From positions 351,501 through 415,500 of the forward strand of contig NZ_JAFEMB010000003.1 of NCBI RefSeq assembly GCF_016892705.1: DNA of 64,000 nucleotides. The letters are read 5' to 3'. A model generated the notes under the pieces. That model saw only the letters and a list, made by a program, of their open reading frames with translations, searched no databases and was not told where the DNA came from. Shown here one piece after another: positions 13,429 through 63,225 of the stretch. Position 1 is the stretch's first letter, and each line of letters begins with the position of its first letter. The translations under genes and the position numbers were made by a program. This DNA comes from Microvirga pudoricolor. Its GTDB lineage: Bacteria; Pseudomonadota; Alphaproteobacteria; Rhizobiales; Beijerinckiaceae.

Positions 13429-13535
13429 GACCTCATCCTGAGGAGCCGCGAAAGCGGCGTCTCGAAGGAGGGCTCGGAGAACACTGGACATATCCTTCGA
13501 GACGAATTGCTTCGCAATTCCCTCAGGATGAGGTC
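13429..13535. repeat. Palindromic intergenic repeat, copy 1
   Basis: Outer arms GACCTCATCCTGAGG (13429-13443) and CCTCAGGATGAGGTC (13521-13535) are exact inverses. Inside lie a hairpin GCCGC-GAAA-GCGGC, a second inverted pair CGTCTCGAAGGA / TCCTTCGAGACG, and a second hairpin GAATTGC-TTC-GCAATTC. The whole can fold as a multi-branched stem. It sits between two convergent genes. Confidence 0.92.
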
Positions 13536-13557
13536 AGAAACACGCAAAACTTAGTTT

Positions 13558-14583
13558 CTACCGTTCCGTGAGCTTCAGCTCGATGCGGCGGTTGCGGGCG
13601 AAGGCCTCGTCCGTGGCGCCCAGATCCAGGGGCTGGTACTCCCCGAACCCCGCCGCGACGAGGTGCTGGGGCGCTATACCCCGCGCGGCGAGCGCCTGCA
13701 CCACCGCGATGGCCCGGGCAGCCGACAGGGCCCAGTTGGACGGGAATTGCGGGGTCGCGATGGGGCGGTTGTCCGTGTGGCCGTCCACGCGGATCACCCA
13801 GGGGATATCGGGCGGGATCTGCCGCTCCAATTCGACGAGCGCGCTGGCGATGCGGTCGAGTTCGCCCGCCGCTTCCGGCCGCAGGTTCGCCTGGCCGGCC
13901 GGGAACAGCACCTCCGACTGGAACACGAAGCGGTCGCCCACGATGCGCACGTCCTGGCGGTTGCCGAGGATCTGGCGCAGGCGGCCAAAGAAGTCGGAGC
14001 GGTAACGGGCCAGCTCCTGCACCCGCTGGGCCAGGGCCACGTTCAGCCGGCTGCCGAGATCGGCGATGCGGGCCTGGCTGTCCTTGTCGCGGGATTCCGA
14101 GGCCGAGAGGGCCTCCTCGAGCGCCGCGAGCTGGCGGCGCATGGCGGCGATCTGCTGGTTGAGGATCTCAACCTGGCTGAGCGCCCGCCCGGTCGCCTGT
14201 TTCTCGGCGTCGAGGGCCGCGTTCAGCTCCCCGGCCTGGGCCTGCTGCGAAGCGCCGCTCTCGATGAGGCCTTGAAGGCGGGCGCGGTCGGCCTCGGCTG
14301 CCTGAAGGGTCGTCTGGAGAGCGTTGATGCTGTCCTGGGCGGTGCGGCGGCCGGAGCGTTCCAGGGCCAGAAGATCCGTCAGCTCGGAGATTTGGCGGTT
14401 GAGCCGGTCGAGCACCGTGCTCTGGCCCGACAATTCGCGGGACAGGAAGAACTGGCCGATCATGAAGATCGAGATCAGGAACACGATGGCAAGCAGCAGG
14501 GTCGAGAGTGCGTCGACGAAGCCCGGCCAATAATTGATCTCGCTCCGGCCGCCCCTGCGCCGTCCGCCGCTGGCCATGGGCAT
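13558..14583 (-). CDS. MotB/OmpA-like protein: membrane anchor, coiled coil and peptidoglycan-binding domain
   Basis: A 341-residue protein. One N-terminal membrane helix (about 18-48) contains the motif FVDALSTLLLAIVFL; Asp24 lines up with the proton-binding Asp of MotB (YADFMTAMMAFFLV). A long coiled coil (55-190) follows, then an OmpA-type domain (about 215-341) with DGHTDNRPI and NRRIELKL, which should bind peptidoglycan. The start overlaps the stop of the MotA-like gene (TGATG), so the two are cotranslated. No flagellar genes are nearby. It is likely the stator-like half of an ion-driven complex of unknown task. TolR/Pal, MotB and ZorB are related architectures. Confidence 0.85.
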   Translation of the reverse strand: MPMASGGRRRGGRSEINYWPGFVDALSTLLLAIVFLISIFMIGQFFLSRELSGQSTVLDRLNRQISELTDLLALERSGRRTAQDSINALQTTLQAAEADRARLQGLIESGASQQAQAGELNAALDAEKQATGRALSQVEILNQQIAAMRRQLAALEEALSASESRDKDSQARIADLGSRLNVALAQRVQELARYRSDFFGRLRQILGNRQDVRIVGDRFVFQSEVLFPAGQANLRPEAAGELDRIASALVELERQIPPDIPWVIRVDGHTDNRPIATPQFPSNWALSAARAIAVVQALAARGIAPQHLVAAGFGEYQPLDLGATDEAFARNRRIELKLTER

Positions 14584-15560
14584 CAGGGCAGCCTTTCACG
14601 GGACAGGCGGTCGAGCACCTGCTTCAGCTCCCGTTCACGGGTGGCTTGAGCCTCGACCCAGTCGCGGATCATCTGCTGCTCGGAGCGCATGTGCTGGACG
14701 AGGCCCTGCACGCCCTCGGCAAGGTTCGCCATGGCCTGGGTGGAGGCGCGGCCCCCGGCGCCGTCGTTCACGGCGGCGGTGAGGCGGTTGAGCGCGAGCG
14801 CGAGATCGTTGGAGGTGGTTGGGCGGTTGTTCAGGTCCACCGGAGTGTCCTGGGTCGAGACCGCGAGCCAGTCCTCCAGCTCGGTGTAGAAGCGGTTCTG
14901 CGCCTGGCCGGCCTGAAGGTCGAGGAAGCCCAGCACCAGGGACCCGGCGAGGCCGAAGAGGGAGGCCGAGAAGGACAGGCCCATGCCCTGGAGCGGACCG
15001 GCCAGCGAATTCTTCAGCTCGTCGAACAGCACGTTCGCGTCCTGGCCCGTGCGCAGGGACGCGATGATGCGTCCGACCGAGCCCACGGTCTCGATGAGGC
15101 CCCAGAAGGTACCCAGCAGGCCCAGGAAGATCAGGAGGCCCGCGAGGTAGCGCACGATCTCCCGGCTCTCGTCGAGGCGGGCGCCCACGGAGTCCAGGAG
15201 CGAGCGGGTCGCCGTGACGGACAGGGCGGAGCGGTTCGACCGGTTGCCGATGAGGGCCGCCATGGGGGCCAGCAGGGTCGGGGTCTCCGGCAGCGCGATG
15301 CCGTCCTCGGAGCGGTGCAGGGCATTGACCCAGTGGATCTCGGGATAGAGCCGCCAGGCCTGCCGGATCGCCAGCACGATGCCGATGACCATCACGCCGA
15401 GAATGAGAGCGTTGAGGCCGGGATTGGCCAGGAACGCTTCCAGGATCTGCTTGTAGAGAATGAAGGCGATGAAGCCCGCCAGCACCAGGAAGACCGCCAT
15501 GCGGATCAGGTAGATGCGTGGCGGTGTCAGGGGTTGGGAGTTCATCTCCGGCGCGCTCAT
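14583..15560 (-). CDS. MotA/TolQ/ExbB proton-channel family protein
   Basis: A 325-residue protein with two N-terminal membrane helices (about 15-70), a cytoplasmic stretch, and a second pair that begins LLIFLGLLGTFWGLIETVGSVGRII (near 142-166) and continues SFSASLFGLAGSLVLGFLDL (near 192-215). The LLGTFWGL segment is the family hallmark. A C-terminal charged helix (about 270-325) is probably cytoplasmic. With the MotB-like partner it should form a 5:2-type ion-driven unit. The gene lies downstream of the suhB-like gene on the same strand (100-base gap). Confidence 0.86.
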   Translation of the reverse strand: MSAPEMNSQPLTPPRIYLIRMAVFLVLAGFIAFILYKQILEAFLANPGLNALILGVMVIGIVLAIRQAWRLYPEIHWVNALHRSEDGIALPETPTLLAPMAALIGNRSNRSALSVTATRSLLDSVGARLDESREIVRYLAGLLIFLGLLGTFWGLIETVGSVGRIIASLRTGQDANVLFDELKNSLAGPLQGMGLSFSASLFGLAGSLVLGFLDLQAGQAQNRFYTELEDWLAVSTQDTPVDLNNRPTTSNDLALALNRLTAAVNDGAGGRASTQAMANLAEGVQGLVQHMRSEQQMIRDWVEAQATRERELKQVLDRLSRERLP

Positions 15561-15660
15561 CCTGTTACGTTACGGGCGTTACTGTGACGGCCCGACCGCC
15601 TGGGATCAAGCACAGCCGGGCGTGGCTCTTGCGCCAACAACAGGAATATGGGGCGAGGGC

Positions 15661-16455
15661 TCAGCTTTTCGCCTTCTTGAGAAGCTTGAGCAGCTCGCGG
15701 TGGGTAAACTCGTTGCCGCAGGCGATGGAGCGCTTCAGCAGCGGGTCAGGGCCGCCATCGGCGTCGGACACGTAGCCGCCCGCCTCCCGGATCAGGATGA
15801 TTCCGGCCGCGATGTCCCAGGAATTGAGGCCTCGCTCCCAATAGGCGTCGAGGCGGCCGCAGGCCACATAGGCCAGATCCAGCGCCGCAGCCCCCCAGCG
15901 GCGCATGCCGCCGGCCTCGCCCATGACGGCGGCGGCCTCCCGCAGCCAGAGGCCGTGGTCGCCCTTGCCGATATGGGGCAGGCCGCAGCCGATGGCGGCG
16001 TCGTCCATGGCGTTGCGGGCCGCCACGCGGATGCGGCGGTTGTTCAGGAACGCGCCCTTGCCCTTCTCGGCGATGAACATCTCGTCCTTGGCCGGGTCGT
16101 AGACCACGCCGGCCACGATCTGGTTGTCCCGCTCCAGGCCGACCGAAATGGCGAAATGGGGCAGGCCGTGGAGAAAGTTCGTCGTGCCGTCCAGCGGGTC
16201 GATGTGCCAGCGGTGGTCCGGGTCGGTGCCGTGCACGACGCCGCTCTCCTCCATCACGAATCCGTAGCCCGGACGGGCCTTCTCCAGGGCCTCGCGCAGG
16301 ATGCTCTCGGCCTTGCGGTCCGCCGCCGACACGAAATCGCCGGGGCCTTTGCGAGACACCTGCAGGTTCTCGACCTCGCCGAAATCACGCTTGAGGGAAC
16401 GCGAGGCCTTCATCACGGCATCGGTCATGACGGTCATGAGGGGCGAGCGGATCAT
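15661..16455 (-). CDS. suhB: Inositol monophosphatase family protein (SuhB-type)
   Basis: A 264-residue phosphatase of the lithium-sensitive IMPase fold. Metal-site motifs are present: MEESG (near 68), WHIDPLDGTTNFLHG (near 83-97), and WDIAAGIILIREAGG (near 213-227). It probably hydrolyses inositol-1-phosphate or related sugar phosphates; E. coli SuhB also acts in rRNA antitermination, which cannot be inferred here. The start at 16455 matches the N-terminal extension usual in Rhizobiales; internal ATGs at 16437 and 16428 are alternatives. Confidence 0.9.
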   Translation of the reverse strand: MIRSPLMTVMTDAVMKASRSLKRDFGEVENLQVSRKGPGDFVSAADRKAESILREALEKARPGYGFVMEESGVVHGTDPDHRWHIDPLDGTTNFLHGLPHFAISVGLERDNQIVAGVVYDPAKDEMFIAEKGKGAFLNNRRIRVAARNAMDDAAIGCGLPHIGKGDHGLWLREAAAVMGEAGGMRRWGAAALDLAYVACGRLDAYWERGLNSWDIAAGIILIREAGGYVSDADGGPDPLLKRSIACGNEFTHRELLKLLKKAKS

Positions 16456-16540
16456 GGTCGGGCGGTCCTGGTCGAAGAGCGGGAGAGGGGTGGGTGATGA
16501 TCACGGCAGCGCGCGCGCGTCAAGCGCGGCAGGGGTAGAA

Positions 16541-17440
16541 TTACCGGGCGCCCAGCCGTTCGGCGGCGAGTTTCTCGGCCCGGGTGCGGTCCTCCGCGCT
16601 CATGTCCTTGAGGGCGTTGTCGAGCCAGGCGTCGTTGAGGCCCTGGCCGGCCGCGATGAGCTGCCAGGCGGCCGCGTCGACCTTGTTCTGCGGCACGCCC
16701 CGTCCCGCCGCCAGCATCCGGGCGAGGCGGTTTTGGGCGATGGCGTTGCCCTTGGCGGCGGCGCGGCGGAAGTAGCGCGCGGCTTGGGCCTCGTCGGCCT
16801 TCACGCCATCCCCGTTGAAAAGCAGGATCGCGTACTCGACCTCGCCCACGGAGCTGCCGTTGCGGGCCGCGCGCTCGAAATAGCGGGCGGCTTCCTTCGG
16901 GTCCTTGGCCACGCCCCGACCGCGCAGGTAGAGGACCCCCAGGGCATGCTGGGCGTCCGCGATCTCGAAATCGGCGGCCTTGCGCAGGAGCGCCGCGGCC
17001 CGCTTCAGGTCGGAATCGGCATTGCTGGTGAGAAGCAGCAGGGCGAGGTTGTGGGAGGCCGTGGGTTCGCCCTTGGCGGCGGCCTCTTCGAGCCAGGCGC
17101 GCCCCTGCGCGGGGTTCTTGTCGATGCCGCGCCCGTCCAGGGCCATGAGCCCGAGCGACGCCAGGGCGTGGGCGTCGCCCTGCTTGGCGGCGAGCTGATA
17201 CCAGCTCGCGGCCCGCTTCGGGTCCATGGGGACGCCGAGGCCCTGGTTGTAGATTTCCCCCAGGAGAGTCAGGGCCGAACCGTCATTGGGGTTCTTCTCC
17301 AGGCGCAAGGTCGCCTCGCGCAGGGCTGTCACGTAGAGGCCACGCTGATAGGCGCCGTAAGCCAGGTCCGGCTCGGTCGCGGCGAGGGCCACCCCGGAGG
17401 AGAGGGCCAGGGCCAGGAGGGCGGCGGAAAGGCGCACCAT
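16541..17440 (-). CDS. Secreted Sel1-repeat (SLR) protein
   Basis: A 299-residue protein with a clean signal peptide (LSAALLALALSSGVALAA, cleavage near residue 21), so it is periplasmic. The rest is a series of about six Sel1-like repeats, for example LGLMALDGRGIDKNPAQGRAWLEEAA and LGVLYLRGRGVAKDPKEAARYFERAA. Such scaffolds usually mediate protein-protein contacts in envelope or signalling complexes. The ATG at 17440 overlaps the stop of the upstream ThiE-like gene (TGATG); the longer frame to 17626 is inside that gene. The partner is unknown. Confidence 0.87.
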   Translation of the reverse strand: MVRLSAALLALALSSGVALAATEPDLAYGAYQRGLYVTALREATLRLEKNPNDGSALTLLGEIYNQGLGVPMDPKRAASWYQLAAKQGDAHALASLGLMALDGRGIDKNPAQGRAWLEEAAAKGEPTASHNLALLLLTSNADSDLKRAAALLRKAADFEIADAQHALGVLYLRGRGVAKDPKEAARYFERAARNGSSVGEVEYAILLFNGDGVKADEAQAARYFRRAAAKGNAIAQNRLARMLAAGRGVPQNKVDAAAWQLIAAGQGLNDAWLDNALKDMSAEDRTRAEKLAAERLGAR

Positions 17441-18090
17441 CAGGCGCGGGCCTCCCGTTCGGCGAGGCTCTTCACGGCCGCCTGGACGGCCTTGGCGAGT
17501 CCTTCGGAATGCGACCAAACCGCATCGCCGAGGGCGACGAACTCGATCCCGGTCTCGGACAGGGCCGCCACGTCGTCGAGGCTCGGCGCGAAGGCGACGC
17601 CCGGCGTCTCGAAGATTTCGGCCCACCAGGCCGCCCGTTCGAGGGTGGACTCGAAGGCGGGCAAGGATCCGTCGGGGCGGGGCTCGCCGAAGAGCAGGTA
17701 ATCGACCCCGGCTTCGCCCAGAACCATGGCGTCATCCTTGGTGCGGATTCCGCCGACCCCGATGGCGCGCTCGCCCTTCAGGCGCTCGCGCAGCTCTCGG
17801 ACCGAGGTTCGGGGGCCGGTCAAGTGGACCCCGTCCGCGCCGCCCCGGGCCGCAACCGTGGCGAGGTCGGCCTCGCCCTCGACGCTCACGATGGCGGCGG
17901 CCCCATGCTCCTGCACGGCGGGCACCAGGGCCTTGACCTGGTTGATGAGGCCCCGCTCGTCGGACGGCGCCAGGCGCAGCAGCACGGCGGCCACGTCCCC
18001 GGCCGCGCAGGCTTCAGTGAGGCGGGGCGCGAAGGAGGCGTCGTCCAGGAGGGGTGTGATGAGATAGAGGCGGGAGGCGGGCTCGGCCAT
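17440..18090 (-). CDS. Thiamine phosphate synthase-like TIM-barrel protein (ThiE/TenI family)
   Basis: A 216-residue TIM barrel. GGADGVHLTGP (near 84-94) corresponds to the ThiE phosphate/pyrophosphate strand, and YLLFGEPRPDGS to the usual DYIGxGPxFPT loop, but the Thr/Lys residues of that loop are changed and IGVGGIRTKDDA replaces the canonical VGxSxHxxxE segment. It is therefore divergent and may not be a true thiamine enzyme. It is translationally coupled to the Sel1 gene and lies downstream of fba after a terminator and a repeat. Confidence 0.72.
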   Translation of the reverse strand: MAEPASRLYLITPLLDDASFAPRLTEACAAGDVAAVLLRLAPSDERGLINQVKALVPAVQEHGAAAIVSVEGEADLATVAARGGADGVHLTGPRTSVRELRERLKGERAIGVGGIRTKDDAMVLGEAGVDYLLFGEPRPDGSLPAFESTLERAAWWAEIFETPGVAFAPSLDDVAALSETGIEFVALGDAVWSHSEGLAKAVQAAVKSLAEREARA

Positions 18091-18132
18091 GTTCCGTCGT
18101 GGGGTCAGAGAATAGGACAGGGCTGTTCTAAT

Positions 18133-18165
18133 GAAAACGGGGCCGTCTTGCGAGGCCCCGTTTTC
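18133..18165 (-). terminator. Terminator hairpin downstream of fba
   Basis: A perfect 12-bp inverted repeat, GAAAACGGGGCC / GGCCCCGTTTTC with a 9-base loop. It lies between fba and the ThiE-like gene, with a T-rich 3' arm in the minus direction, so it should end transcripts of the tkt-gap-pgk-fba unit or attenuate read-through. Confidence 0.82.
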
Positions 18166-18250
18166 TCGATGACGATTGCGGCGAAAGCCGGGTCGGGTGA
18201 AGGAGCGTTTCCTAGGGCCCTCATGCTCGGGCCAAGGTCTCGCCTCGAAG

Positions 18251-18358
18251 CCTCATCCTGAGGGAATTGCGGAGCAATTCGTCTCGAAGGATGTGGCGTC
18301 TCCAGTGCTCTCTGGATCATCCTTCGAGACGCCCGCTGCGCGGGCCCTCAGGATGAGG
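18251..18358. repeat. Palindromic intergenic repeat, copy 2
   Basis: Outer arms CCTCATCCTGAGG and CCTCAGGATGAGG; inner pair CGTCTCGAAGGAT / ATCCTTCGAGACG; hairpins GAATTGC-GGA-GCAATTC and GCCCGC-TGC-GCGGGC. The hairpin order is the reverse of copy 1, so it sits in opposite orientation. It lies just 3' of fba and ahead of the terminator at 18133. Confidence 0.92.
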
Positions 18359-18377
18359 GCACTGGAGGTGCAGGCTT

Positions 18378-19466
18378 CTACTCGGCGGCCTGGCGGCTGG
18401 CGCCGAACTTCGGGTCGAGTTCGCCCGAGGCGTAGCGCTTAGCCATCTCGGCCGGGGTCAGGACGCGCTTGATCTTGGAGGCCTGGCCGGCGGTGTTGAA
18501 CTCCTGCAGGCGCTGCTTGCAGAGCTTCGTCATCGCCTCCATGGCGGGCTTCAGGTACTTGCGCGGGTCGAACTCGCCGGGGCTCTCGGACAGGATTTTG
18601 CGGATCTGGCCCGTCATGGCCATGCGGTTGTCCGTGTCGATGTTGATCTTGCGCACGCCGTTCTTGATGCCGCGCTGGATCTCTTCCACGGGCACGCCCC
18701 AGGTCGGCTTCATCTGGCCGCCGTACTGATTGATGATGTCCTGGAGGTCCTGCGGCACCGAGGACGAGCCGTGCATCACCAGATGGGTGTTCGGGAGCTT
18801 CGCGTGGATCTCCTCGATCACCTTCATGGCGAGGATGTCGCCGTCCGGCTTGCGGGTGAACTTGTAGGCGCCGTGGGAGGTGCCCATGGCGATGGCGAGC
18901 GCGTCGACCTTGGTCTCGGCCACGAATTTCACGGCCTCGTCCGGGTTGGTCAGGAGCTGGTCGTGGGAGAGCTTGCCCTCGGCGCCGTGACCGTCCTCGG
19001 CCTCGCCTTCGCCGCTCTCCAGGGAGCCCAGAACGCCGAGCTCACCCTCGACCGAGATGCCGCCCAGATGGGCCATCTCGGTGACCTTGCGGGTCACGCC
19101 CACATTATAGTCCCAATCGGCCGGGGTCTTGCCGTCGGCCTTGAGCGAGCCGTCCATCATTACGGAGGTGAAGCCCGCCTGGATGGCGGTCATGCAGGTG
19201 GCGGCCTCGTTGCCGTGGTCGAGATGCACGCAGACCGGGATCTGCGGATAGATCTCGGTGACGGCGTCCATCATGTGCTTGAGCATGACGTCGTTGGCGT
19301 AGGAGCGCGCGCCGCGGGAAGCCTGGATGATGACCGGGGCGTCGACCTCGCTGGCGGCCGCCATGATGGCCAGCGCCTGCTCCATGTTGTTGATGTTGAA
19401 GGCGGGCACGCCGTAGCCTTCTTCGGCAGCGTGATCGAGGAGCTGTCTTAAGGTAATGCGGGCCAC
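18378..19466 (-). CDS. fba: Fructose-bisphosphate aldolase, class II
   Basis: A 362-residue zinc aldolase that interconverts fructose-1,6-bisphosphate with DHAP and glyceraldehyde-3-phosphate. The zinc and substrate motifs are VCVHLDHG (near 77-84), [20 protein letters not shown] and [10 protein letters not shown]. An acidic insert near 150-165 ([15 protein letters not shown]) is typical of the long CbbA-type subfamily. It is the last gene of the tkt-gap-pgk-fba series, with a 54-base gap after pgk. Confidence 0.96.
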
Positions 19467-19520
19467 GTCGTCCTCCTGGTTGTTGCGCGTTCGAGCCGGC
19501 TGTGCGGCCCCTTGATCGTT

Positions 19521-20717: not shown

Positions 20718-20755
20718 GGTGGCCTCGGGTCGGAACGGTCTTCGGCGAAACGGCT

Positions 20756-21763: not shown

Positions 21764-21810
21764 AATCTGTCTCCCTTGAGCAAAATCCGGTCCGAGAGGA
21801 CCCCGAACGT

Positions 21811-28644: not shown

Positions 28645-29358
28645 ATGCGGCCATCCAAGCGCGCGCCCGACGAGTTGCGCCCCGTCACCCTGGAGCGCGG
28701 CGTCGCCCGCTATGCGGAAGGCTCCTGCCTCGTCTCCTTCGGGAACACCCGCGTGCTGTGCACCGCCTCGCTCGAGGAGAAGGGTCCGCCCTGGCTGCGG
28801 GGCACCGGCAAGGGCTGGGTCACGGCGGAGTATTCCATGCTGCCCCGCGCCACCCACGAGCGCACCCGCCGCGAGGTCAATTCGGGCAAGCCGTCAGGCC
28901 GCACCCAGGAAATCCAGCGCCTCATCGGGCGCAGCCTGCGCGCCGTCGTGAACCTGCCCGCCATGGGCGAGCGCCAGATCGTGGTGGATTGCGACGTGAT
29001 CCAGGCGGATGGCGGCACCCGCACGGCCTCCATCACGGGCGCCTGGGTGGCCTTGCACGACTGCTTCGCCTGGATGCAGGGCCGGTCGATCATCTCCATC
29101 AACCCGCTGCGCGAACCCGTAGCTGCGGTCTCCTGCGGCATCTACCAGGGGACCCCGGTGCTCGACCTGGACTATGCAGAGGATTCTTCCGCCGAAACGG
29201 ACGCCAACTTCGTGATCACGGGTTCGGGCGGCATCGTGGAGGTGCAGGGCACGGCGGAGGGCAAGCCCTTCTCCGAGGACGAGTTCCTGAGCCTCCTGCG
29301 GCTCGCCAAGGCCGGGGTGAACCAGCTTGTGGACCTGCAGAAGAAGGCGGTGGCGTAA
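28645..29358 (+). CDS. rph: Ribonuclease PH
   Basis: A 237-residue phosphorolytic 3'-5' exoribonuclease for tRNA 3' trimming. Family motifs: [73 protein letters not shown] (phosphate-binding Arg), and the Asp pair in [30 protein letters not shown] precedes the ATG by 8 bases. It is followed by a tandemly expanded repeat and then rdgB. Confidence 0.97.
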
Positions 29359-29379: not shown

Positions 29380-29566
29380 CTCATCCTGAGGAGGCCGTCA
29401 GGCCGTCTCGAAGACCTCATCCTGAGGAGGCCGTCTGGCCATCTCGAAGGCCTCATCCTGAGGAGGCCGTCAGGCCGTCTCGAAGGAGGGCTCCAGTTGG
29501 CACTGGAAACACTCCGCTGGACCATCCTTCGAGACGAATGGCTGCGCCATTCCCTCAGGATGAGGG
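29380..29566. repeat. Palindromic intergenic repeat, copy 3, with 36-nt tandem arms
   Basis: Three left arms starting CTCATCCTGAGGAGGCC occur head to tail at 29380, 29416 and 29452 (36-base period), each with a short hairpin (GGCCGTCAGGCC type) and a CTCGAAG end. They are followed by one right arm, ATCCTTCGAGACG ... CCCTCAGGATGAGGG. The array fills nearly the whole rph-rdgB gap. Confidence 0.92.
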
Positions 29567-36509: not shown

Positions 36510-36652
36510 CCTCATCCTGAGGAGGGCCGTTAGGCCCGTCTCGAAGAGCCTGCCCTCGGACTTGATCCGAGGGAGGGCTCTAGCGGAGTACTTGCGGTGC
36601 TGGATGAGCCATCCTTCGAGACGAGTTGCTTCACAACTCCCTCAGGATGAGG
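36510..36652. repeat. Palindromic intergenic repeat, copy 4
   Basis: Outer arms CCTCATCCTGAGG (36510-36522) and CCTCAGGATGAGG (36640-36652); hairpin GGGCCGTTAGGCCC; inner CGTCTCGAAG / CCTTCGAGACG; hairpin AGTTGC-TTC-ACAACT. An extra GC-rich hairpin (CCCTCGGAC...GATCCGAGGG) is inserted in the centre. It lies between convergent lysR and yraN. Confidence 0.9.
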
Positions 36653-41344: not shown

Positions 41345-42130
41345 CTACCACCAGAGCGCTGCGGCCTGACGGTCCTGCTCACGCTTTGGCGCATGTTGCG
41401 TTTGGAGCGACTGGTCGAGCGCGGCAAGCACCCGCCGAACCGCCGAGTCGAACGACGGACCGGATTTGTCACGAGGGCGAGCCAGACTCAAGGGCAGCTC
41501 GTCGAAAATGCGCCCAGGCTTGGGCTGCATCACGACCGCCCGGTCGGCGAGGGTCACGGCCTCCTGCACGTCGTGGGTGACCAGCACCACGGTGGGGCGC
41601 GTCTCCTCCCACAGGCCCAGCAGATGCTCGTGCAGGCTGGCCCGGGTGAAGGCATCGAGGGCCGAGAAGGGCTCGTCCAACAGCAGCACCTTCGGGTTCG
41701 TCACGAAGGCGCGCGCGATGGCCACGCGCTGTTGCTGGCCACCCGAGAGATCGCGCGGCCAGCGATCCGCGTGTTCGGAGAGGCCAACCTTCGCCAGGGC
41801 ATGACCGACGCGCTCGCGGCGCTCGGCGGCGCCCACCCCGTCGAGTCCGAACGCGATGTTGTCGGTGACCGTGAGCCAGGGCAGCAGGCGCGGTTCCTGG
41901 AACACGATGCCGATGGCCGCGTCGGGCTCGGTGATCGTCGTGCCGTCGAGGCGGATCGCGCCGGCGCTCGCCCGGTCGAGGCCCGCGATGAGGCGCAGCA
42001 GCGTGGTCTTGCCGCAGCCCGAGCCGCCGATGAGCGCCACGATCTCGCTCTCACGGACGGACAGGTTGATGTCGGAGAGTGCCCGCGTGCCGTCCGCGTA
42101 GGTTTTGGACAGATGTTCGAGATTCAGCAT
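41345..42130 (-). CDS. ABC transporter ATP-binding protein, nitrate/sulfonate/taurine type
   Basis: A 261-residue ATPase. Walker A GGSGCGKTT (near 35), Q-loop FQEPRLLPWLTV, signature LSGGQQQRVAIARA (near 133), Walker B VLLLDEPFSALD, and H-loop VTHDVQEAVTLADR. The sequence is of the SsuB/TauB/NrtD group. It is the last gene of the importer, separated from the permease gene by 331 bases that contain repeat copy 5. No strong ribosome-binding site precedes the ATG at 42130. Confidence 0.9.
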   Translation of the reverse strand: MLNLEHLSKTYADGTRALSDINLSVRESEIVALIGGSGCGKTTLLRLIAGLDRASAGAIRLDGTTITEPDAAIGIVFQEPRLLPWLTVTDNIAFGLDGVGAAERRERVGHALAKVGLSEHADRWPRDLSGGQQQRVAIARAFVTNPKVLLLDEPFSALDAFTRASLHEHLLGLWEETRPTVVLVTHDVQEAVTLADRAVVMQPKPGRIFDELPLSLARPRDKSGPSFDSAVRRVLAALDQSLQTQHAPKREQDRQAAALWW

Positions 42131-42461
42131 GGCACGGTCCAGCACAGGGCGGCGATGCCGTCGCGCTCGTGGGCGGGGCGCGGCTCGGGACCAGGACCCG
42201 GATCCGCCAGTGGCAGGAATCCCCTGATCTCCGATCCGCAATCGATCATCAGCACTTGGGACTGGTTGCTGGCGGCCGCTCTCTCTGCCCTCATCCTGAG
42301 AAACGGTGCAGCCGCGTCTCGAAGGAAGTTCCAGAGAGCCCGGAAGGCACCCTTCGAGACGGGCCTAACGGCCCCCTCAGGGTGAGGCTTCGAGACGAAT
42401 GGCTGTCCCGTTCCCTCAGGATAAGGGCAGAGAGGGGGCGAGAACGGTGTCGGCTCTCGCA
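42131..42461. other. Gap inside the ABC importer operon, filled by a repeat
   Basis: No gene is visible. The proximal 150 bases are unremarkable; the remainder is palindromic repeat copy 5. Such a gap is unusual between permease and ATPase genes of this importer type. Confidence 0.7.
42281..42434. repeat. Palindromic intergenic repeat, copy 5
   Basis: The outer arms are longer than elsewhere: CTCTCTGCCCTCATCCTGAG (42281-42300) against an inverse 42415-42434 with one mismatch. Inside are two right arms (…CCCTTCGAGACGGGCC…CCCTCAGGGTGAGG and TTCGAGACGAATGGC…CCCTCAGGATAAGGG), so it looks like a composite of two elements. It lies inside an ABC importer operon. Confidence 0.9.
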
Positions 42462-43355
42462 TCACAGTCGCTCCCGCACCGTGTCCTGCCAGCGCACGAG
42501 GGGCTTCGTGCCGAGCATCAGAAGGCTGTCGGCGAGCTTGCCGAGAAGCGCGAAGGCGATGATGGCGGCCAGGATCTGGTCCGGCTTGCCCATCTGCTGG
42601 CCGTCGACGAGCAGGTAACCCAGCCCCTCGGACGCGCCCATGAACTCGGCCGCCACCACGAACATGAAGCCGAGCCCGAGGCCCGAGCGGAGCGCGATGA
42701 CGGCTTCGGGCAGAACGGCCGGCAAAAGGATGCGGCGGGCGAGCTTGAAGCGGGAGAGGCGAAACACGCGTCCGACCTCCACGAGCTTGCGGTCCACCGA
42801 CAGGATCGCGCCCGCGATGCCGAGATAGACCGGGAAGAACACGCCGACCGCGATCAGAGCCACCTTCGAGGCCTCGAAGATCCCAAGCCAGAGGATGAAG
42901 AGCGGCACCCAGGCGATGGACGGGATGGCGCGCAGGGCCTGGAGCGTCGGGTCGAGCAGGCGGCGGATCGTGTCGCTGGCCCCCGAGAGTGCGCCGAGCA
43001 CGATTCCGGCGGCCGCCCCGATGGCAAAGCCTGCGGCCACGCGCCAGAGGGTCGCCCAGACATGGGTCCAGAGTTCGCCCGTCTCCGACAGGCCCCAGAG
43101 CGTCGCGACGATGCGGCTCGGGGGCGGTACGAGACGGCCTTGGGCCCAGCCGATCGAGACGATGCCCTCCCAGATCAGCGCGATCGCCACGGGAAGAAAA
43201 AGGCCGAGAAGGACGCGCAGGTCGACCGCGCGGCGCTTCTCGGCCGAGTGAGGCGCCGCGAGAGCGGCGGCACCTTCAGGGGAGGACCAGGCGTCGCCCG
43301 CGGCGCGACCCGAGGCTTGGCCTGTCACGGCGCTCTCCCGTGCGAGACCGGGCAT
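42462..43355 (-). CDS. ABC transporter permease, nitrate/sulfonate/taurine type
   Basis: A 297-residue permease. After a polar N-terminal extension of about 45 residues come six membrane helices; the EAA loop motif reads LPAVLPEAVIALRSGLGLGFMFVVAAEFMGASEGLGYLL (near 210-250), typical of SsuC/TauC. The start is uncertain: ATG 43355 is used, with a GTG at 43328 as alternative. It lies 63 bases downstream of the binding-protein gene. Confidence 0.88.
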   Translation of the reverse strand: MPGLARESAVTGQASGRAAGDAWSSPEGAAALAAPHSAEKRRAVDLRVLLGLFLPVAIALIWEGIVSIGWAQGRLVPPPSRIVATLWGLSETGELWTHVWATLWRVAAGFAIGAAAGIVLGALSGASDTIRRLLDPTLQALRAIPSIAWVPLFILWLGIFEASKVALIAVGVFFPVYLGIAGAILSVDRKLVEVGRVFRLSRFKLARRILLPAVLPEAVIALRSGLGLGFMFVVAAEFMGASEGLGYLLVDGQQMGKPDQILAAIIAFALLGKLADSLLMLGTKPLVRWQDTVRERL

Positions 43356-55462: not shown

Positions 55463-55465
55463 GTC

Positions 55466-56206: not shown

Positions 56207-56209
56207 TAC

Positions 56210-56744: not shown

Positions 56745-56762
56745 GTCGATTAAAATTCCCTG

Positions 56763-57560: not shown

Positions 57561-57636
57561 GCCGGGCCGCAATCCAAGCTTGACGGATCCGCCCCGCTGG
57601 CGTTCCGTTCCGCCATCGTTTTACGGAGGAATCGCC

Positions 57637-58232: not shown

Positions 58233-58295
58233 CGGGTCATCTTTCCTCGCATCGTCAACGCCGCTATACGGGGCCGACATCCAGGGAGACAGCCT

Positions 58296-59108
58296 ATGAC
58301 GGAGATGCGGCTCGTAGTGGTCGGCGCGGCCGGGCGCATGGGGCGTATGCTCATCAAGGCGGTATCCGAGATCGAGGGCTGCCGCCTCGCCGGCGCCATC
58401 GAGCGGGAAGGCTCGCCGGTCCTGGGCCAGGATGCGGGCGTCCTCGCGGGCCTCCCGCCCCTGGGCGTCGCGGTCACGGACGATCCGCTGCCGGTCTTCG
58501 CCGCCGCGGACGGTGTCCTGGATTTTACGGCGCCCTCCGCCACCACGGGCTTCGCCGCCCTGGCCGCCCAGGCGCGCATCGTCCACGTCATCGGCACCAC
58601 GGGCCTGGGCGAGGACGATTTCACCCGGCTGGAAGCCGCCGCCCGACATGCCCGCATCGTGCAGTCCGGCAACATGTCGCTCGGTGTGAACCTGCTCGCG
58701 GGCCTCGTGCGCAAAGCCGCGGCGACGCTGGGCGACGACTGGGACATCGACATCCTGGAAATGCACCACCGCATGAAGGTGGACGCTCCCTCCGGCACCG
58801 CGCTTCTCCTCGGAGAGGCCGCCGCGCAGGGCCGGCGCGTGGCGCTCAAGGAGCGTTCGGTGCGCGTGCGGGACGGCCATACGGGCGCGCGGGTGCCGGG
58901 CGATATCGGTTTCGCGACCTTGCGCGGCGGGTCGGTGGTCGGCGAGCACACGGTCTATTTCGCCACCCAGGGCGAGCGTCTCGAACTCACCCACCGGTCC
59001 GAGGATCGCGGCATCTTTGCGCGCGGTGCCGTCAAGGCGGCGCTCTGGGCCTTCGACAAGAAGCCCGGCTACTACACCATGACGGATGTGCTGGACCTGA
59101 GCGAATAG
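58296..59108 (+). CDS. dapB: 4-hydroxy-tetrahydrodipicolinate reductase
   Basis: A 270-residue lysine/diaminopimelate enzyme. NAD(P)H loop [13 protein letters not shown] (near 8-20); the catalytic region reads [21 protein letters not shown] (near 155-175), with the His pair and Lys of Dap[19 protein letters not shown] follows. Normal length. It belongs to the plus-strand series pyrF-DUF1330-DUF1330-dapB-gpmA. Confidence 0.96.
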
Positions 59109-59196
59109 CGAATGGTGAGGGGCGAGTGGTTCTTTCCGCCTCGCCGCCTCCGCGCCTCCGCCCACCCCCATTCGCTATCCGCCACTCACCATTCGC
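59108..59196. repeat. Inverted repeat between dapB and gpmA
   Basis: GCGAATGGTGAG (59108-59119) and CTCACCATTCGC (59185-59196) are exact inverses flanking 65 bases. It lies at the dapB stop and 23 bases before the gpmA start, so it could act in the mRNA. It is unrelated to the seven long repeats. Confidence 0.75.
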
Positions 59197-59219
59197 CCAT
59201 CAATCGGAGTTTGACCCCC

Positions 59220-59840
59220 ATGGATCGCCTTCTCGTCCTTGCCCGCCACGGCCAGAGCGACTGGAACCTCAAGAACCTGTTCACCGGCTGGAAGGACCCC
59301 GGCCTGACGGAACTCGGCGTGGAGGAGGCTCGCAACGCGGGCAAGCGCCTCAAGGCCATGGGCGTGGAGTTCGATGTCGCCTACACGTCGGTTCTGTCCC
59401 GCGCCCAGGAGACCTGCCGGTTGATCCTGGAGGAGATCGGCCAGCCGAATCTCGAGACGATCCGGGACGTCGCCCTCAACGAGCGCGATTATGGCGACCT
59501 GTCGGGCCTCAACAAGGACGACGCCCGCGCCCGCTGGGGCGAGGAGCAGGTGCATATCTGGCGCCGGTCCTACGACGTGCAGCCCCCCGGTGGTGAGAGC
59601 CTGAAGGATACGGTGGCCCGCGTGCTGCCCTATTACGTGCAGGAGATCCTGCCCCGCGTCATGCGCGGCGAGCGCGTTCTGGTGGCGGCCCACGGCAATT
59701 CGCTCCGGGCCCTCGTCATGGTGCTCGATGGCCTGACGCCGGAGACGATCCCGACCATGGAACTCGCCACCGGCATCCCCCTGGTCTACCGCCTCAAGGA
59801 GGACACGACCGTGGCGGACAAGAAGGTGCTGGAGGCGTAA
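59220..59840 (+). CDS. gpmA: 2,3-bisphosphoglycerate-dependent phosphoglycerate mutase
   Basis: A 206-residue mutase of the short alphaproteobacterial form. Catalytic His10 in [38 protein letters not shown] and [12 protein letters not shown]. It interconverts 3- and 2-phosphoglycerate. CGGAG lies 10 bases before the ATG at 59220. The gene is followed by repeat copy 6. Confidence 0.95.
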
Positions 59841-59859
59841 CGGCTTCCAGCCTAAGCGC

Positions 59860-60051
59860 GACCTCATCCTAACGAGCCGCGTCAACGGCGTCTCGAACAC
59901 CCTGACCTCATCCTGAGGAGGCCGTCAGGCCGTCTCGAAGGAGGGCTCCAGCGGAGCGGATCCGGTGCAAACTGGACCATCCTTTGAGACGAGCCTGCGG
60001 CTCCCTCAGGATGAGGTCGAGACGCCCGCCACGCGGGCCCTCAGGATGAGG
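59860..60051. repeat. Palindromic intergenic repeat, copy 6 (composite)
   Basis: Two left arms (GACCTCATCCTAACGAGCC at 59860, GACCTCATCCTGAGGAGG at 59904) and two right arms (CCTTTGAGACGAGCC…CCCTCAGGATGAGGTC, then GAGACGCCCGCC…CCCTCAGGATGAGG). The outer left arm carries substitutions (CCTAACG for CCTGAGG). It looks like one element nested in another. It lies between convergent gpmA and DUF2244. Confidence 0.9.
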
Positions 60052-60065
60052 CTTCGGCCCGCTTT

Positions 60066-60575
60066 CTAAAATCCCCGCTTCACGTCCGACAGGGCGCGCC
60101 CGAACGCATCCGCGAGGCTCTCCCGCTCCGGAGGCGAGAGGTCGCGGGCGATCACCACGCTCTGGCCCCGGGACGACAGGGACAGACGCTGCAGGCCGAA
60201 CTCGTCGTCGATCTCACGATCCAGGCGGGTCCAGAGCGGGTTGAAGCGCCATTCCCGCGCCTCGCCCCGGTGCGTGACCTTGCGGACCAGGACTCGGATC
60301 GGGGTCAGCTCCAGGATCTCGAAGGACTGGCCCTGCCGGAAATTGATCCGGAAGGCGAGGTAGAGCCCCAGGAAATCGAGGCCGAAGAAGCCCGCCACGG
60401 GCCAGAACCCCATGACGATGAACGGAATGCTGGCCACGACCGAGCACAGGCAGACCAGGATCATGACGATCTTGAAGCCCTGGGGGCCGAGCGACCGATG
60501 CGGCCGGATCACGGCCGAGAACACGGGCGCGTCCTGGTGCCCCGCCGGATCCGATGCTGCCTTGCCGCTGTCCAT
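60066..60575 (-). CDS. DUF2244 family membrane protein
   Basis: A 169-residue protein: PVFSAVIRPHRSLGPQGFKIVMILV, two adjacent membrane helices (about 40-85; VCLCSVVASIPFIVMGFWPVAGFFGLDFLGLYLAF), then RINFRQGQSFEILELTPIRVLVRKVTHRGEAREWRFNP. This is the DUF2244 pattern. The function is unknown. The ATG at 60575 is 21 bases from the divergent nth start. Confidence 0.88.
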   Translation of the reverse strand: MDSGKAASDPAGHQDAPVFSAVIRPHRSLGPQGFKIVMILVCLCSVVASIPFIVMGFWPVAGFFGLDFLGLYLAFRINFRQGQSFEILELTPIRVLVRKVTHRGEAREWRFNPLWTRLDREIDDEFGLQRLSLSSRGQSVVIARDLSPPERESLADAFGRALSDVKRGF

Positions 60576-60595
60576 GGACCGATTATAACGCATCC

Positions 60596-61345
60596 ATGTC
60601 CGATCTGAAGCGGGCTCCCCGCCGCACACCCAAGCCATCCGCGAAACGCTCCGCCAAGGGTCCACCCCTCGCGGGAGTGAAGGTCAAGCGCGCCTCAACT
60701 CCCAAGCCCGTCGACCGCAAGACGATGATGGAGATCTTCCGCCGGTTCGAGGAGGCCAACCCGCACCCGGAAGGCGAGTTGAACTACCGCAACCCTTACA
60801 CCCTCCTCGTGGCGGTGGCTTTATCGGCCCAGTCCACGGATGTAGGCGTCAACAAGGCGACAGCGCTTCTCTTCCCACTGGCGGACACGCCCCGGAAAAT
60901 GCTGGATCTGGGCGAAGAGAGGCTGAAGGAGTGCATCAAGACGCTCAACTTCTTCAACACCAAGGCCCGCAACGTCATGGCGACGGCCCGGCTCCTGGTG
61001 GACGAGTTCGGCGGCGTGGTGCCGCCCTCCATCGAGGTGCTGGAGACTTTTCCGGGAGTTGGGCGCAAGACCGCGAGCGTCGTGGTCAACATCGCCTTCG
61101 GGATCCCGCGCATCGCCGTGGACACGCACATCTTCCGGGTGGCGAACCGCATCCCCCTCGTGGTCACGAAGACGCCCAACGACACCCAGGCGCCGCTGGA
61201 AGCCCTGGTGCCGCCCGAATACGCGCTCCACGCCCATCACTGGCTGATCCTGCACGGGCGCTACGTGTGCAAGGCGCGCAAGCCCGAGTGCTGGCGCTGC
61301 CCCATCAACGACCTGTGCCGCTATCCCGACAAGACCGCGCCCTAG
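60596..61345 (+). CDS. nth: Endonuclease III
   Basis: A 249-residue DNA glycosylase/AP lyase for oxidised pyrimidines. LSAQSTDVGVNKAT, the helix-hairpin-helix LETFPGVGRKTASVVVN (catalytic Lys), the catalytic Asp in AVDTHIFRVANR, and a C-X6-C-X2-C-X5-C [4Fe-4S] cluster (CKARKPECWRCPINDLC) are all present. A basic N-terminal extension of about 35 residues is longer than in E. coli (211 residues). It converges with uppP (6-base gap). Confidence 0.96.
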   Translation: MSDLKRAPRRTPKPSAKRSAKGPPLAGVKVKRASTPKPVDRKTMMEIFRRFEEANPHPEGELNYRNPYTLLVAVALSAQSTDVGVNKATALLFPLADTPRKMLDLGEERLKECIKTLNFFNTKARNVMATARLLVDEFGGVVPPSIEVLETFPGVGRKTASVVVNIAFGIPRIAVDTHIFRVANRIPLVVTKTPNDTQAPLEALVPPEYALHAHHWLILHGRYVCKARKPECWRCPINDLCRYPDKTAP

Positions 61346-61351
61346 GGCCCG

Positions 61352-62149
61352 TCAGCCGAAGATCAGCAATCCGGCCAGGCCGGCTGTGCCCAGGATGATC
61401 CGCCACCAGGCGAACGGCGCGAAGCCGTGGCTGGAAATGTAGTTCAGGAACGTCTTCACCACGAAGAGCGCCGAGATGAAGGCCGCCACGAAGCCGATGA
61501 CGATGGCCGTGACGTCGTCGCTCGATAGGGTTTTGTAGTTCTTGAGCAGGTCGTAGGTGAAGGCGCCCGCCATGGTGGGCATGGCGAGAAAGAACGAGAA
61601 CTCCGCCGCCGACCGCTTGTCGGCCCCCATCAGCATGGCGCCCACGATGGTGGCGCCCGAGCGCGACACCCCCGGCACCATGGCCAGGCATTGGACGAAG
61701 CCGATCTTGGCGTACATGGGCAGCGGAAACTTCGTGGCGTCCGTCTGCGTGACCTTGAGCGGGAAGCCGTCCACCAGCAGCAGCACGAAGCCGCCCGCGA
61801 TGAGGGTCATGCACACGATCCAGGGGTTGAACAGCACGTCCTTGATGAAGCCGTGCATCACCGCCCCGATGGCCGCCGCCGGCAGAAAGGCGATGAGCAC
61901 GCCGAGCACGAAGCGCCGGGCGTCCGGACTGGACGGCAGGGCCTTCGCGATCGCCCACAGCCGCCCCCAATAGGCGAGCAGGATCGCCAGGATGGCGCCG
62001 AGCTGAACCAGCACCTCGAAGGTCTTCCCGGTCGATTCGAACCCGAGGAAATGGCCGATCAGAAGAAGATGGCCCGTCGACGAGACGGGAAGAAACTCGG
62101 TCAATCCCTCGATGAAGCCGAGGAAAAGCGCCTGGAACGTTTGAATCAT
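61352..62149 (-). CDS. uppP: Undecaprenyl-diphosphatase (BacA/UppP)
   Basis: A 265-residue inner-membrane phosphatase that recycles undecaprenyl diphosphate in cell-wall synthesis. The two motifs are [16 protein letters not shown] (near 15-30) and [15 protein letters not shown] (near 158-172), with Glu and Ser/Arg in the active site. About eight membrane helices. The ATG at 62149 starts [15 protein letters not shown]; a frame to 62209 adds no homologous residues. Confidence 0.96.
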
Positions 62150-62352
62150 TGCTTGAATATCCCCAGCCCCGCGCCAGATCGGAAAGCTCTGCCCCAAATC
62201 CTCCCGCAAATCATCCGGAAAGAAGGTTTAGTGTCGTGCATGGCTGGCGCCTCCCGCTTGCGCCGGGCACATGAGATTCACCAAAACCCCTTACCCTCCG
62301 TTAACGGAACGCGGCCTTATTCTCGCCGCCAGCGTCGCATCTGACAAAGCAT

Positions 62353-63045
62353 ATGCTCATCCTCCATCACTATCCCTTTTCGCCGCACTCCCGGTTCGCC
62401 CGTCTGGTTCTGGCCGAAATGGGCCTGGGTCCCGAGACGGTGGAGGAGAAGCCCTGGGAGCGGCGCGTTCCCTTCCTGGAGATCAATCCCGCCGGACACA
62501 TTCCCGTGCTAGTGGACGAGAACGGCCTCGTGGTTCCAGGCGCGGGGGTGCTGGCCGAGTACCTCGACGATACGCGGGGCGAGCGCCTCGGCGACCGGCG
62601 GCTGATGCCGGGGCACCCGGCCGTGCGCATGGAGGTGCGGCGGCTGATGGATTGGTTCCTCGTGAAGTTCCACGAGGAAGTTTCCGATTACCTCGTCACG
62701 GAAAAGATCTATAAGCGCTTCATGCCGCCGGATCTCGGCGGCGGACCGCCTGACATGAACGCCATCAGGGCCGGGCGGGCCAATATCCGGTATCATCTGA
62801 AGTATATCGGCTATCTGATCGCGACGCGGAACTGGCTGGCCGGCGACCAGATGACCTATGCGGATCTGGCGGCGGCAGCCCATCTGTCGGTAGTGGATTA
62901 TCTCGGCGACGTGCCATGGGACGAGGACGAAACAGCGAAGCATTGGTACGCCCGGATCAAGTCCAGGCCGTCCTTCCGCGCGCTGCTGGCGGACCGGGTC
63001 GCCGGGATGGCGCCGGCGAGCCATTACGACGACCTGGATTTTTAA
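62353..63045 (+). CDS. Glutathione S-transferase family protein
   Basis: A 230-residue two-domain GST: thioredoxin-like N-terminal domain (HHYPFSPHSRFARLVLAEMGL, INPAGHIPVLVDENGLVVPGAGVLAEYLDD) and a helical C-terminal domain with WLAGDQMTYADLAAAAHLSVVDYLG. The N-terminal residue that would activate glutathione is Ser (PFSPHS). The substrate is unknown. In Rhizobiales this GST is commonly followed by queG, as here, though a repeat intervenes. The 203 bases upstream, up to uppP, show no gene. Confidence 0.9.
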   Translation: MLILHHYPFSPHSRFARLVLAEMGLGPETVEEKPWERRVPFLEINPAGHIPVLVDENGLVVPGAGVLAEYLDDTRGERLGDRRLMPGHPAVRMEVRRLMDWFLVKFHEEVSDYLVTEKIYKRFMPPDLGGGPPDMNAIRAGRANIRYHLKYIGYLIATRNWLAGDQMTYADLAAAAHLSVVDYLGDVPWDEDETAKHWYARIKSRPSFRALLADRVAGMAPASHYDDLDF

Positions 63046-63105
63046 GCGCTCGGTGGGAGATATCCCCCAGCCTCAACCTAACGAAAATCGCTAGATTCGG
63101 CTCGA

Positions 63106-63225
63106 GACCTCATCCTGAGGGAATGGCGAAGCCATTCGTCTCGAAGGATGGTCCAGTCCGCACCGGAAGCACTCCGCTGAAGCCCTCCTTCGCGACGCGG
63201 CTTTGCCGCTCCTCAGGATGAGGTC
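63106..63225. repeat. Palindromic intergenic repeat, copy 7
   Basis: Outer arms GACCTCATCCTGAGG and CCTCAGGATGAGGTC; hairpin GAATGGCGAAGCCATTC; inner CGTCTCGAAGGA / TCCTTCGCGACG (one change); hairpin GCGGC-TTTG-CCGC. It ends 11 bases before the queG ATG and contributes to its leader. Confidence 0.92.

What the first reader, a model, noticed from the sequence alone, without database searches (positions are those of the whole stretch)
13429..63225. Family of at least seven long palindromic intergenic repeats with a multi-branched fold
Copies at 13429, 18251, 29380, 36510, 42281, 59860 and 63106 share an outer arm (CTCATCCTGAGG / CCTCAGGATGAG), an inner arm (CGTCTCGAAGGA / TCCTTCGAGACG) and two small hairpins that differ between copies but stay self-complementary (GAATTGC/GCAATTC, GCCGC/GCGGC, GGCC...GGCC). 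That is compensatory variation, so structure and not just sequence is kept. The fold would be a closed outer stem with two hairpins and a long inner stem, a cloverleaf-like shape of about 107-120 nt. None is inside a gene. Related repeats are known in Methylobacteriaceae and Bradyrhizobium-like genomes, but I know of no assigned function.
Basis: partly seen in the sequence, partly recalled or inferred. Interest (0 to 1): 0.72.

Follow-up and report, generated by a model that had tools for sequence, protein, structure and literature searches.

The report
Mobile DNA repeats with mismatched hairpin pairs
A soil bacterium carries dozens of short repeated DNA elements, each made of two mirror-image units whose small hairpins change sequence while staying self-paired yet almost never resemble each other, which suggests that the elements fold as single-stranded DNA and last or move only when the two hairpins differ.

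Summary
In detail: the arms are at all seven places, far above chance, and the side hairpins covary strongly (63 units: score 0.787 vs 0.141 shuffled, 0/500). The module is a ~36-42 nt unit, CTCATCCTGAGG-[hairpin]-CGTCTCGAAGGA; each "palindrome" is two units head to head, a REP doublet (REPIN-like). The exact unit is in 29 of 37 genomes searched of the window's genus (Microvirga, inferred) and in many alphaproteobacterial genera. No unit was found around two orthologous sites in 20 of 20 relatives each. The host has no RAYT/Y1 match. New points: (1) arms are kept by sequence (0 of 40 changes compensated in this genome), hairpins by pairing; (2) the two hairpins of a doublet are unlike: 0 of 207 share a stem (15.95 expected), 1 of 207 is within 3 edits (29.3 expected), 0 of 105 with inherited sides controlled (7.0 expected); one exception in another 13; (3) loops are mostly cGNAg/cGNNAg, on the unit strand only, the type recalled to stabilise DNA hairpins. 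Best reading: a non-autonomous mobile element read as folded single-stranded DNA, needing unlike hairpins so that its arms do not zip into one long palindrome. The enzyme is unknown. The cloverleaf is the usual predicted minimum here, not in relatives.

The parts
13429..13535 (.). doublet 1: units 13432-13469 (+, hairpin GCCGC) and 13493-13532 (-, hairpin GAATTGC), 23-nt spacer
   Evidence: between ABC transporter ORF 11355-13154(+) and OmpA ORF 13558-14583(-), convergent
18251..18358 (.). doublet 2: units 18252-18291 (+, GAATTGC) and 18320-18357 (-, GCCCGC), 28-nt spacer
   Evidence: between thiamine phosphate synthase ORF 17440-18090(-) and class II aldolase ORF 18378-19466(-)
29380..29564 (.). 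cluster 3: three head-to-tail units (29380-29415, 29416-29451, 29452-29487, all GGCC) and one inverted unit 29525-29564 (GAATGGC)
   Evidence: just after RNase PH ORF 28645-29358(+); no unit in the ~1-kb stretch fetched after that gene from 20 of 20 relatives
36511..36651 (.). doublet 4: units 36511-36548 (+, GGGCC, broken inner arm) and 36612-36651 (-, GAGTTGT), 63-nt spacer that holds an extra palindrome CCCTCGGACTTGATCCGAGGG at about 36553-36573
   Evidence: no unit in the stretch fetched from 20 of 20 relatives (both flanks mapped in 19), in several of which the flanking genes nearly touch
42290..42425 (.). cluster 5 (decayed): units 42290-42326 (+), 42350-42386 (-) and 42386-42425 (-)
   Evidence: between ABC ATPase ORF 41345-42241(-) and permease ORF 42462-43355(-)
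59860..60051 (.). cluster 6: decayed + unit near 59862-59899, units 59907-59942 (+, GGCC) and 59980-60015 (-, GAGCC), partial - unit near 60016-60051
   Evidence: between histidine phosphatase ORF 59112-59840(+) and DUF2244 ORF 60066-60665(-), convergent. The two decayed units were read by eye
63106..63225 (.). doublet 7: units 63109-63148 (+, GAATGGC) and 63186-63222 (-, GCGGC), 37-nt spacer
   Evidence: after GST ORF 62353-63045(+)

Best explanation
The seven copies are REP-doublet (REPIN-like) non-autonomous mobile elements. Shown: the unit is two sequence-conserved arms around a hairpin whose sequence is free but whose pairing is kept by compensatory change; doublets are two units head to head with a spacer of preferred lengths and polarity; the two hairpins of a doublet are almost never alike; the loop is mostly of the GNA/GNNA type, on the unit strand only; copies are present at some orthologous intergenic sites and absent at others. 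Inferred: each unit is read as a folded single strand of DNA by an enzyme acting in trans, which recognises the arms by sequence and the hairpin by shape. Unlike hairpins are needed because two like hairpins would let the 36-42 nt units zip into one long palindrome, which hides both unit hairpins and is open to SbcCD-type cleavage or replication deletion. The mobilising enzyme is unknown: no RAYT/Y1 match was found in this genome.
For: Covariation of the hairpin: 95.5% of cells paired vs 60.7% shuffled; 125 cells changed on both sides vs 39.3; score 0.787 vs 0.141 (0/500 each), 0.092 or less when slid. Doublets with the same 5' stem arm: 0 of 207 vs 15.95 expected over six groups; whole hairpins within 3 edits: 1 of 207 vs 29.3 expected, within 1 edit 0 vs 10.0; 0 of 105 vs 7.02 expected with spacer side kept, 0 of 2000 shuffles; 0 of 42 in viral contigs (1.2 expected) and 1 of 13 in order-scan loci; 0 of 13 head-to-head in G035 (0.60 expected) and 0 of 14 tail-to-tail in G289 (2.75 expected). 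Cross-pairing is weaker than chance even among pairs of different stems (4 or fewer of 300 in each of four groups). Model doublets with two like hairpins: 162 of 162 fold as one hairpin, mean about -59 vs -41 kcal/mol for real ones. Loops: cGNAg 236 of 300 triloops, cGNNAg 111 of 164 tetraloops, GNYA 72 vs GNRA 42; TN..C loops 1 of 321. Presence/absence around orthologous sites. States that fit stepwise compensation at one orthologous site: CAGCC/GGCTG, CAGAC/GGCTG (one mismatch), CAGAC/GTCTG in different species. Dispersed, mostly between genes.
Against: No movement was observed and no target duplication could be read, because relatives are too diverged. No transposase candidate: PF01797 has 0 matches in this genome, and within the genus 4 of 29 carriers have it vs 2 of 8 non-carriers. 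One doublet with like hairpins exists (L249, G180) and one near-like one (L058). Four of the six groups are not significant alone, and in the mixed 'other' group overall hairpin similarity is not below re-paired (224 of 300). Within this genome alone the side-controlled test is weak: 0 seen vs about 2.75 expected. Two of five covariation measures do not exceed shuffles (pairs with a double change 5 vs 4.3; further pair types 14 vs 16.3). In relatives the predicted minimum is seldom the cloverleaf (6-7 of 110). That GNA/GNNA loops favour DNA over RNA is recalled, not tested here.
Confidence: 0.55

Rival explanations
1. RNA element: copies downstream of genes are transcribed and act as 3' end protectors, RNase sites or terminators, so the hairpins are kept as RNA structure.
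For: Fewer copies between divergent genes (6 of 53 placed clusters vs 70 of 252 gaps) and more between convergent ones (18 of 53 vs 41 of 252) by a crude gene caller; the gaps include those that hold copies. Covariation fits RNA as well as single-stranded DNA.
Against: Loops are GNA/GNNA on the unit strand, and the two units of a doublet lie on opposite strands, so any one transcript shows one such loop and one TNC-type loop. GNRA loops are not preferred over GNYA (42 vs 72). No Rfam family reached threshold in the window. No unit was found around two orthologous sites in relatives.
Confidence: 0.15
2. Relic family without present function: the conserved arms reflect past spread, like-hairpin doublets are lost because long palindromes are unstable, and hairpins stay perfect because replication template switching repairs imperfect hairpins rather than through selection.
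For: No transposase match. Heterodimers have been suggested to be protected from clearance in other REP families (PMC3733652 section 14). Decayed copies exist in the window. Hairpins with a mismatch occur at orthologous sites.
Against: Template switching does not predict the conserved loop motif on one strand, and it should also make the two units alike. 76 of 117 units sampled in this genome have both arms intact, and the family is in many genera.
Confidence: 0.2
3. Protein-binding chromosome sites (gyrase, IHF or nucleoid proteins, as reported for other REPs), with the arms as the binding sequence.
For: Arms are conserved by sequence.
Against: Does not explain free but compensated hairpins or unlike pairing. 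8 of 37 sampled genomes of the genus lack the exact unit, which argues against an essential role.
Confidence: 0.07

Closest known systems
REPINs / REP doublets mobilised by RAYTs (Bertels and Rainey 2011, PMC3116915; passages read)
   Same: Two inverted REP units with a spacer, extragenic, high copy, doublet as replicative unit, predicted to fold in single-stranded DNA, compensatory changes in the hairpin
   Different: There the two ends carry the same conserved 16-mer and a RAYT is associated; here each unit has its own inner hairpin, the two hairpins differ, and this genome has no RAYT match
CGTC-tagged REPs (Di Nocera et al. 2013, PMC3733652; abstract, passages and section 14 read)
   Same: Predominant in Alphaproteobacteria, head-to-head dimers, heterodimers predominate in some families, no dedicated transposase
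   Different: There a CGTC tag at one end is followed by an 8-9 bp stem that starts with A-T pairs and ends in a CCA-like tail; here CGTC follows the hairpin and stems are mostly 5-7 bp starting with G-C. The consensus sequences are in figures that are not held, so identity with one of its Bradyrhizobium families (for instance GTAG-14 with GCGG/CCGC loops) is not excluded. Repeats that fit the CGTC description occur separately in this genome (window 53533)
E. coli BIMEs (GTAG-3 heterodimers; via PMC3733652 section 14)
   Same: Inverted dimers of unlike units
   Different: There units differ by loop length; here 94 different 5' stem arms were seen among 287 distinct closed hairpins
Caulobacter CcrM-associated intergenic repeats, CIR (Chen and Shapiro 2003; seen only as a passage and reference in PMC10969869)
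   Same: Alphaproteobacterial, reported strictly intergenic
   Different: Named for CcrM (GANTC) sites; only 4 of 52 doublets here contain GANTC. Sequences not compared

Membership tests
REPIN (REP doublet moved by a RAYT) | two REP units in inverted orientation with a spacer | tested here: met
   52 head-to-head doublets among the sampled loci of this genome
REPIN (REP doublet moved by a RAYT) | extragenic, high copy | tested here: met
   113 exact outer arms; 54 of 56 sampled clusters intergenic by a crude gene caller
REPIN (REP doublet moved by a RAYT) | cognate RAYT in the genome | tested here: not met
   PF01797 0 matches and NF047646 0 matches in this genome; in the order 11 of 29 carriers have a RAYT-family match vs 37 of 268 non-carriers (my count; 7 of the 11 are one genus)
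REPIN (REP doublet moved by a RAYT) | REPs flank the RAYT gene | tested here: not met
   34 fetched Y1/RAYT loci scanned, a part of the listed matches, with 1.5 kb or less of flank; one (L213) holds a tail-to-tail doublet about 1 kb from the gene, none nested
REPIN (REP doublet moved by a RAYT) | GTAG/GTGG guide 5' of the hairpin | tested here: not met
   consensus 5' of the hairpin is CTGAGGAG; guide definition from passages of PMC6006769
REPIN (REP doublet moved by a RAYT) | evidence of excision or transposition | not testable with these tools
   no reads available; presence/absence around orthologous sites only
CGTC REP | unpaired CGTC tag directly 5' of the stem | tested here: not met
   CGTC lies 3' of the hairpin in the unit, its C pairing
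CGTC REP | 8-9 bp stem starting with A-T pairs, 4-5 nt loop, CCA-like tail | tested here: not met
   stems mostly 5-7 bp starting G-C, loops mostly 3-4 nt
CGTC REP | no dedicated transposase | tested here: met
   no Y1/RAYT match in this genome; other transposase families were not searched
Rfam structured RNA | match to a curated family | tested here: not met
   0 matches at gathering score in the window
CcrM-associated intergenic repeat (CIR) | GANTC site in the element | tested here: not met
   GANTC in 4 of 52 doublets of this genome and 7 of 110 elsewhere

The most novel reading that the evidence does not exclude
The doublet is the substrate of an unknown single-stranded-DNA recombinase, not of the Y1/RAYT family, that reads conserved arms by sequence and a free-sequence hairpin by shape, and it works only when the two hairpins are unlike. 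Its hairpins turn over between species at fixed genomic sites while the unlike-pair rule is kept: a mobile element under both positive design (fold each unit) and negative design (do not fold the units together).
Probability: 0.25. Interest if true: 0.85.

Novelty: new variant of a known kind. Interest (0 to 1): 0.6.

Why it matters
The preference of many REP families for heterodimers was said in print to have 'no obvious explanation' (PMC3733652 section 14, which offers protection from clearance as a possibility). This family is a natural data set for it: many different hairpins around constant arms, covariation inside each hairpin, and avoidance of likeness between the two. It turns the question into a direct test (make like and unlike doublets, measure stability and movement) and points to an unidentified factor that reads folded DNA in Alphaproteobacteria.

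Tried and rejected
1) A strict two-class rule (stem second base C on one unit, G on the other), suggested by the listing, is not general: this genome has C-C and A-A pairs. 2) RAYT nesting: L213 first looked like a RAYT between two units; with coordinates corrected both units lie on one side, about 1 kb away. 3) Complementary flanks beyond the arms, suggested: in this genome not clearly above shuffles (5 of 44 runs of 4 or more vs 8.5% shuffled); the excess in the mixed named set (45 of 107 vs 19%) looks like a longer Bosea arm consensus and was not tested further. 4) Independent insertion versus hairpin replacement at the two M. arsenatis sites could not be separated: flanks look homologous in several species and some hairpins fit stepwise change, but others are unrelated or on the other side; no tree was made. 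5) Arm words as literature queries: a 13-base word gave 0 papers; six words of 11-13 bases gave 46 papers, 40 of them listed, and none of the 40 titles concerns these repeats. Searches on repeats in related genera listed no title on this family as such; PMC3733652 treats REPs of Bradyrhizobium, but its figures with the consensus sequences are not held. Subscription journals are mostly missing from the library. 6) Phages: no match to the 29380 cluster. Plasmids: one 74% match to the 63106 doublet, Methylobacterium bullatum. 7) A covariance model of whole doublets was not built; hairpins of unequal length align poorly, so a gapless set of 63 units was used.
Full report
What is there. No tRNA and no Rfam family is called in the window. 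The genome (4.77 Mb, 16 contigs) holds 61+52 exact outer arms against none for the reversed pattern. The listing stops short of all 113 places; I fetched stretches around the listed ones. The cluster at 29380, with three head-to-tail units and one inverted unit, shows that the module is a unit of about 36-42 nt: CTCATCCTGAGG, hairpin, CGTCTCGAAGGA. A palindrome of the finding is two units head to head. 52 such doublets were parsed in the sampled loci of this genome (up to 2 mismatches per arm), with spacers mostly of 37 (28 cases), 28 (8) and 23 nt (8). The spacers have a polarity; in the 23- and 28-nt classes GAATNGC-type hairpins sit on one side, while in the 37-nt class they lie mostly on the other, so doublets have in part spread as units.

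Who has it. Genome G013 is Microvirga arsenatis (L138 matches it at 100% over 8 kb), so the window's genus is Microvirga by inference. The exact unit is in 29 of 37 genomes of that genus searched and 1 of 24 others of the order, and in 29 of 297 genomes drawn across the order. The two Sphingomonas natans records are doubtful: the one doublet parsed there has no clean hairpin.

Structure. For 63 distinct units of one length, chosen by length and arm match and not by pairing, the six-pair hairpin is paired in 95.5% of cells (60.7% shuffled), with a covariation score of 0.787 against 0.141 (0 of 500 shuffles reach it) and 0.092 or less when slid; two of the five measures, which count pairs and pair types, do not exceed shuffles. 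Four of six positions show all four Watson-Crick types. The arms behave differently: in this genome 40 changed arm positions, none compensated (the 43 in named loci, also none, are biased because the scan asked for exact arms). So the arms are kept by sequence and the hairpins by pairing. At one orthologous site in Microvirga the first hairpin reads CAGCC/GGCTG in G027, CAGAC/GGCTG in G007 and G010 (one mismatch) and CAGAC/GTCTG in G033, states that fit stepwise compensation.

Unlike pairs. In 207 doublets of six groups none has the same 5' stem arm on both sides; random re-pairing within groups gives 15.95 (this genome 0 of 52 vs 5.12, P 0.003; Bosea 0 of 40 vs 5.81, 0 of 2000 shuffles; the other four groups alone not significant). 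Counting whole hairpins within 3 edits, 1 of 207 doublets (L058, Bosea) is near-like against 29.3 after re-pairing; within 1 edit 0 against 10.0. Overall similarity is below all 300 re-pairings in four of the six groups, but not in the named Microvirga (36 of 300 as low) or the mixed 'other' group (224 of 300). Because sides are partly inherited I repeated the stem test with spacers oriented and the left and right sets kept: 0 of 105 against 7.02 expected, reached by 0 of 2000 shuffles; this genome alone is weak there (0 vs about 2.75). Further sets: 0 of 42 in viral contigs (1.2 expected; some loci repeat), 1 of 13 in order-scan loci (the exception L249 has GGACC twice; one of the 13, L245, is from this genome), 0 of 13 in the 8-contig genome G035 (0.60 expected), and 0 of 14 tail-to-tail doublets in single-contig G289 (2.75 expected, P 0.026). 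Cross-pairing is weaker than in random pairs of different stems in all four groups tested (4 or fewer of 300). Head-to-tail neighbours may be alike (4 of 23), as at 29380.

Fold. Model doublets with two like hairpins fold as one long hairpin in 162 of 162 cases in both model sets (mean about -59 kcal/mol against -41 for real ones). Real doublets of this genome give the cloverleaf as minimum in 32 of 52 (DNA parameters) or 38 of 52 (RNA parameters, 45% after re-pairing). In 110 doublets of other genomes only 6 or 7 do, about as after re-pairing (4.7%). The cloverleaf is therefore not a general thermodynamic minimum, a result against the simple picture.

DNA or RNA. Of 512 units, 471 close with at least 4 bp and a loop of 6 nt or less. 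236 of 300 triloops are cGNAg and 111 of 164 tetraloops cGNNAg; among distinct cores 113 of 166 and 67 of 114. GNYA (72) outnumbers GNRA (42). On the unit strand the complementary TN..C form is seen once in 321 loops. From memory, these are the loops that stabilise DNA hairpins; one search lists papers on DNA mini-hairpins, of which I saw only the listing and abstract starts. The one-strand rule suggests that each unit is read as a single strand, and because the two units of a doublet lie on opposite strands it argues against one RNA being the functional fold.

Place and movement. A crude self-trained gene caller puts 54 of 56 clusters outside predicted genes: 18 convergent, 29 co-directional, 6 divergent and 1 at a locus edge, against 41, 141 and 70 of all gaps of 60 bp or more. 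At least two calls are wrong: 36510 is called divergent but is convergent by alignment, and 42290 is called divergent but lies between two minus-strand genes. Around 36510 none of 20 fetched relatives has a unit (both flanks mapped in 19) and in several the flanking genes nearly touch; after the RNase PH gene at 29380 none of 20 has one within the ~1 kb fetched. At two M. arsenatis sites some congeners have a doublet at the same place with other hairpins; at the first of them six others have only 3-9 bp between the anchors. Congeners are mostly 75-93% identical there, too far to read target duplications.

Enzyme. No Y1 or RAYT match in this genome; other transposase families were not searched. 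In the genus, 4 of 29 carriers and 2 of 8 non-carriers have PF01797. Across the order 11 of 29 carriers and 37 of 268 non-carriers have the RAYT family, 7 of the 11 in one genus; by genus I count 7 of 20 against 24 of 103. The 34 Y1/RAYT loci fetched are not framed by these units.

Reading. It works like a REP doublet but is not filed as a RAYT REPIN or a CGTC REP, since defining features were tested and not met. The most likely mechanism is single-strand recognition of each unit, with unlike hairpins keeping the two units from pairing with each other. Clearance of long palindromes, proposed for heterodimers in PMC3733652, may act at the same time.

Noticed in passing
window 53533 (+); loci L284-L298: A separate palindromic repeat, CGTCATCCCCGG..CCGGGGAT, often followed by CCA, fits the published description of CGTC REPs: 6 hits (some loose) in 480 kb sampled of this genome and 11 in 44 kb of Microvirga loci.
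   Followed up: partly
window 36553-36573: A palindrome CCCTCGGACTTGATCCGAGGG sits inside the spacer of the 36510 doublet; it looks like a nested decayed repeat of another family.
   Followed up: no
G289 (unnamed, order relative), 14 listed pairs: In this single-contig genome the listed pairs are mostly tail-to-tail (outer arms facing) with a 46-49 nt spacer in 13 of 14 and the pair GCCCGC(C)/GACCGC common, unlike the head-to-head form in Microvirga (the listing was cut).
   Followed up: partly
G337:C1 (L297), orthologous site 2: A short stretch CCTCCTGAGGATGAGG lies where congeners have a doublet, possibly a deletion remnant.
   Followed up: no
IMG/VR contigs L299-L373: 75 stretches of viral contigs carry the unit; whether these are prophages or misbinned host DNA was not checked.
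   Followed up: no
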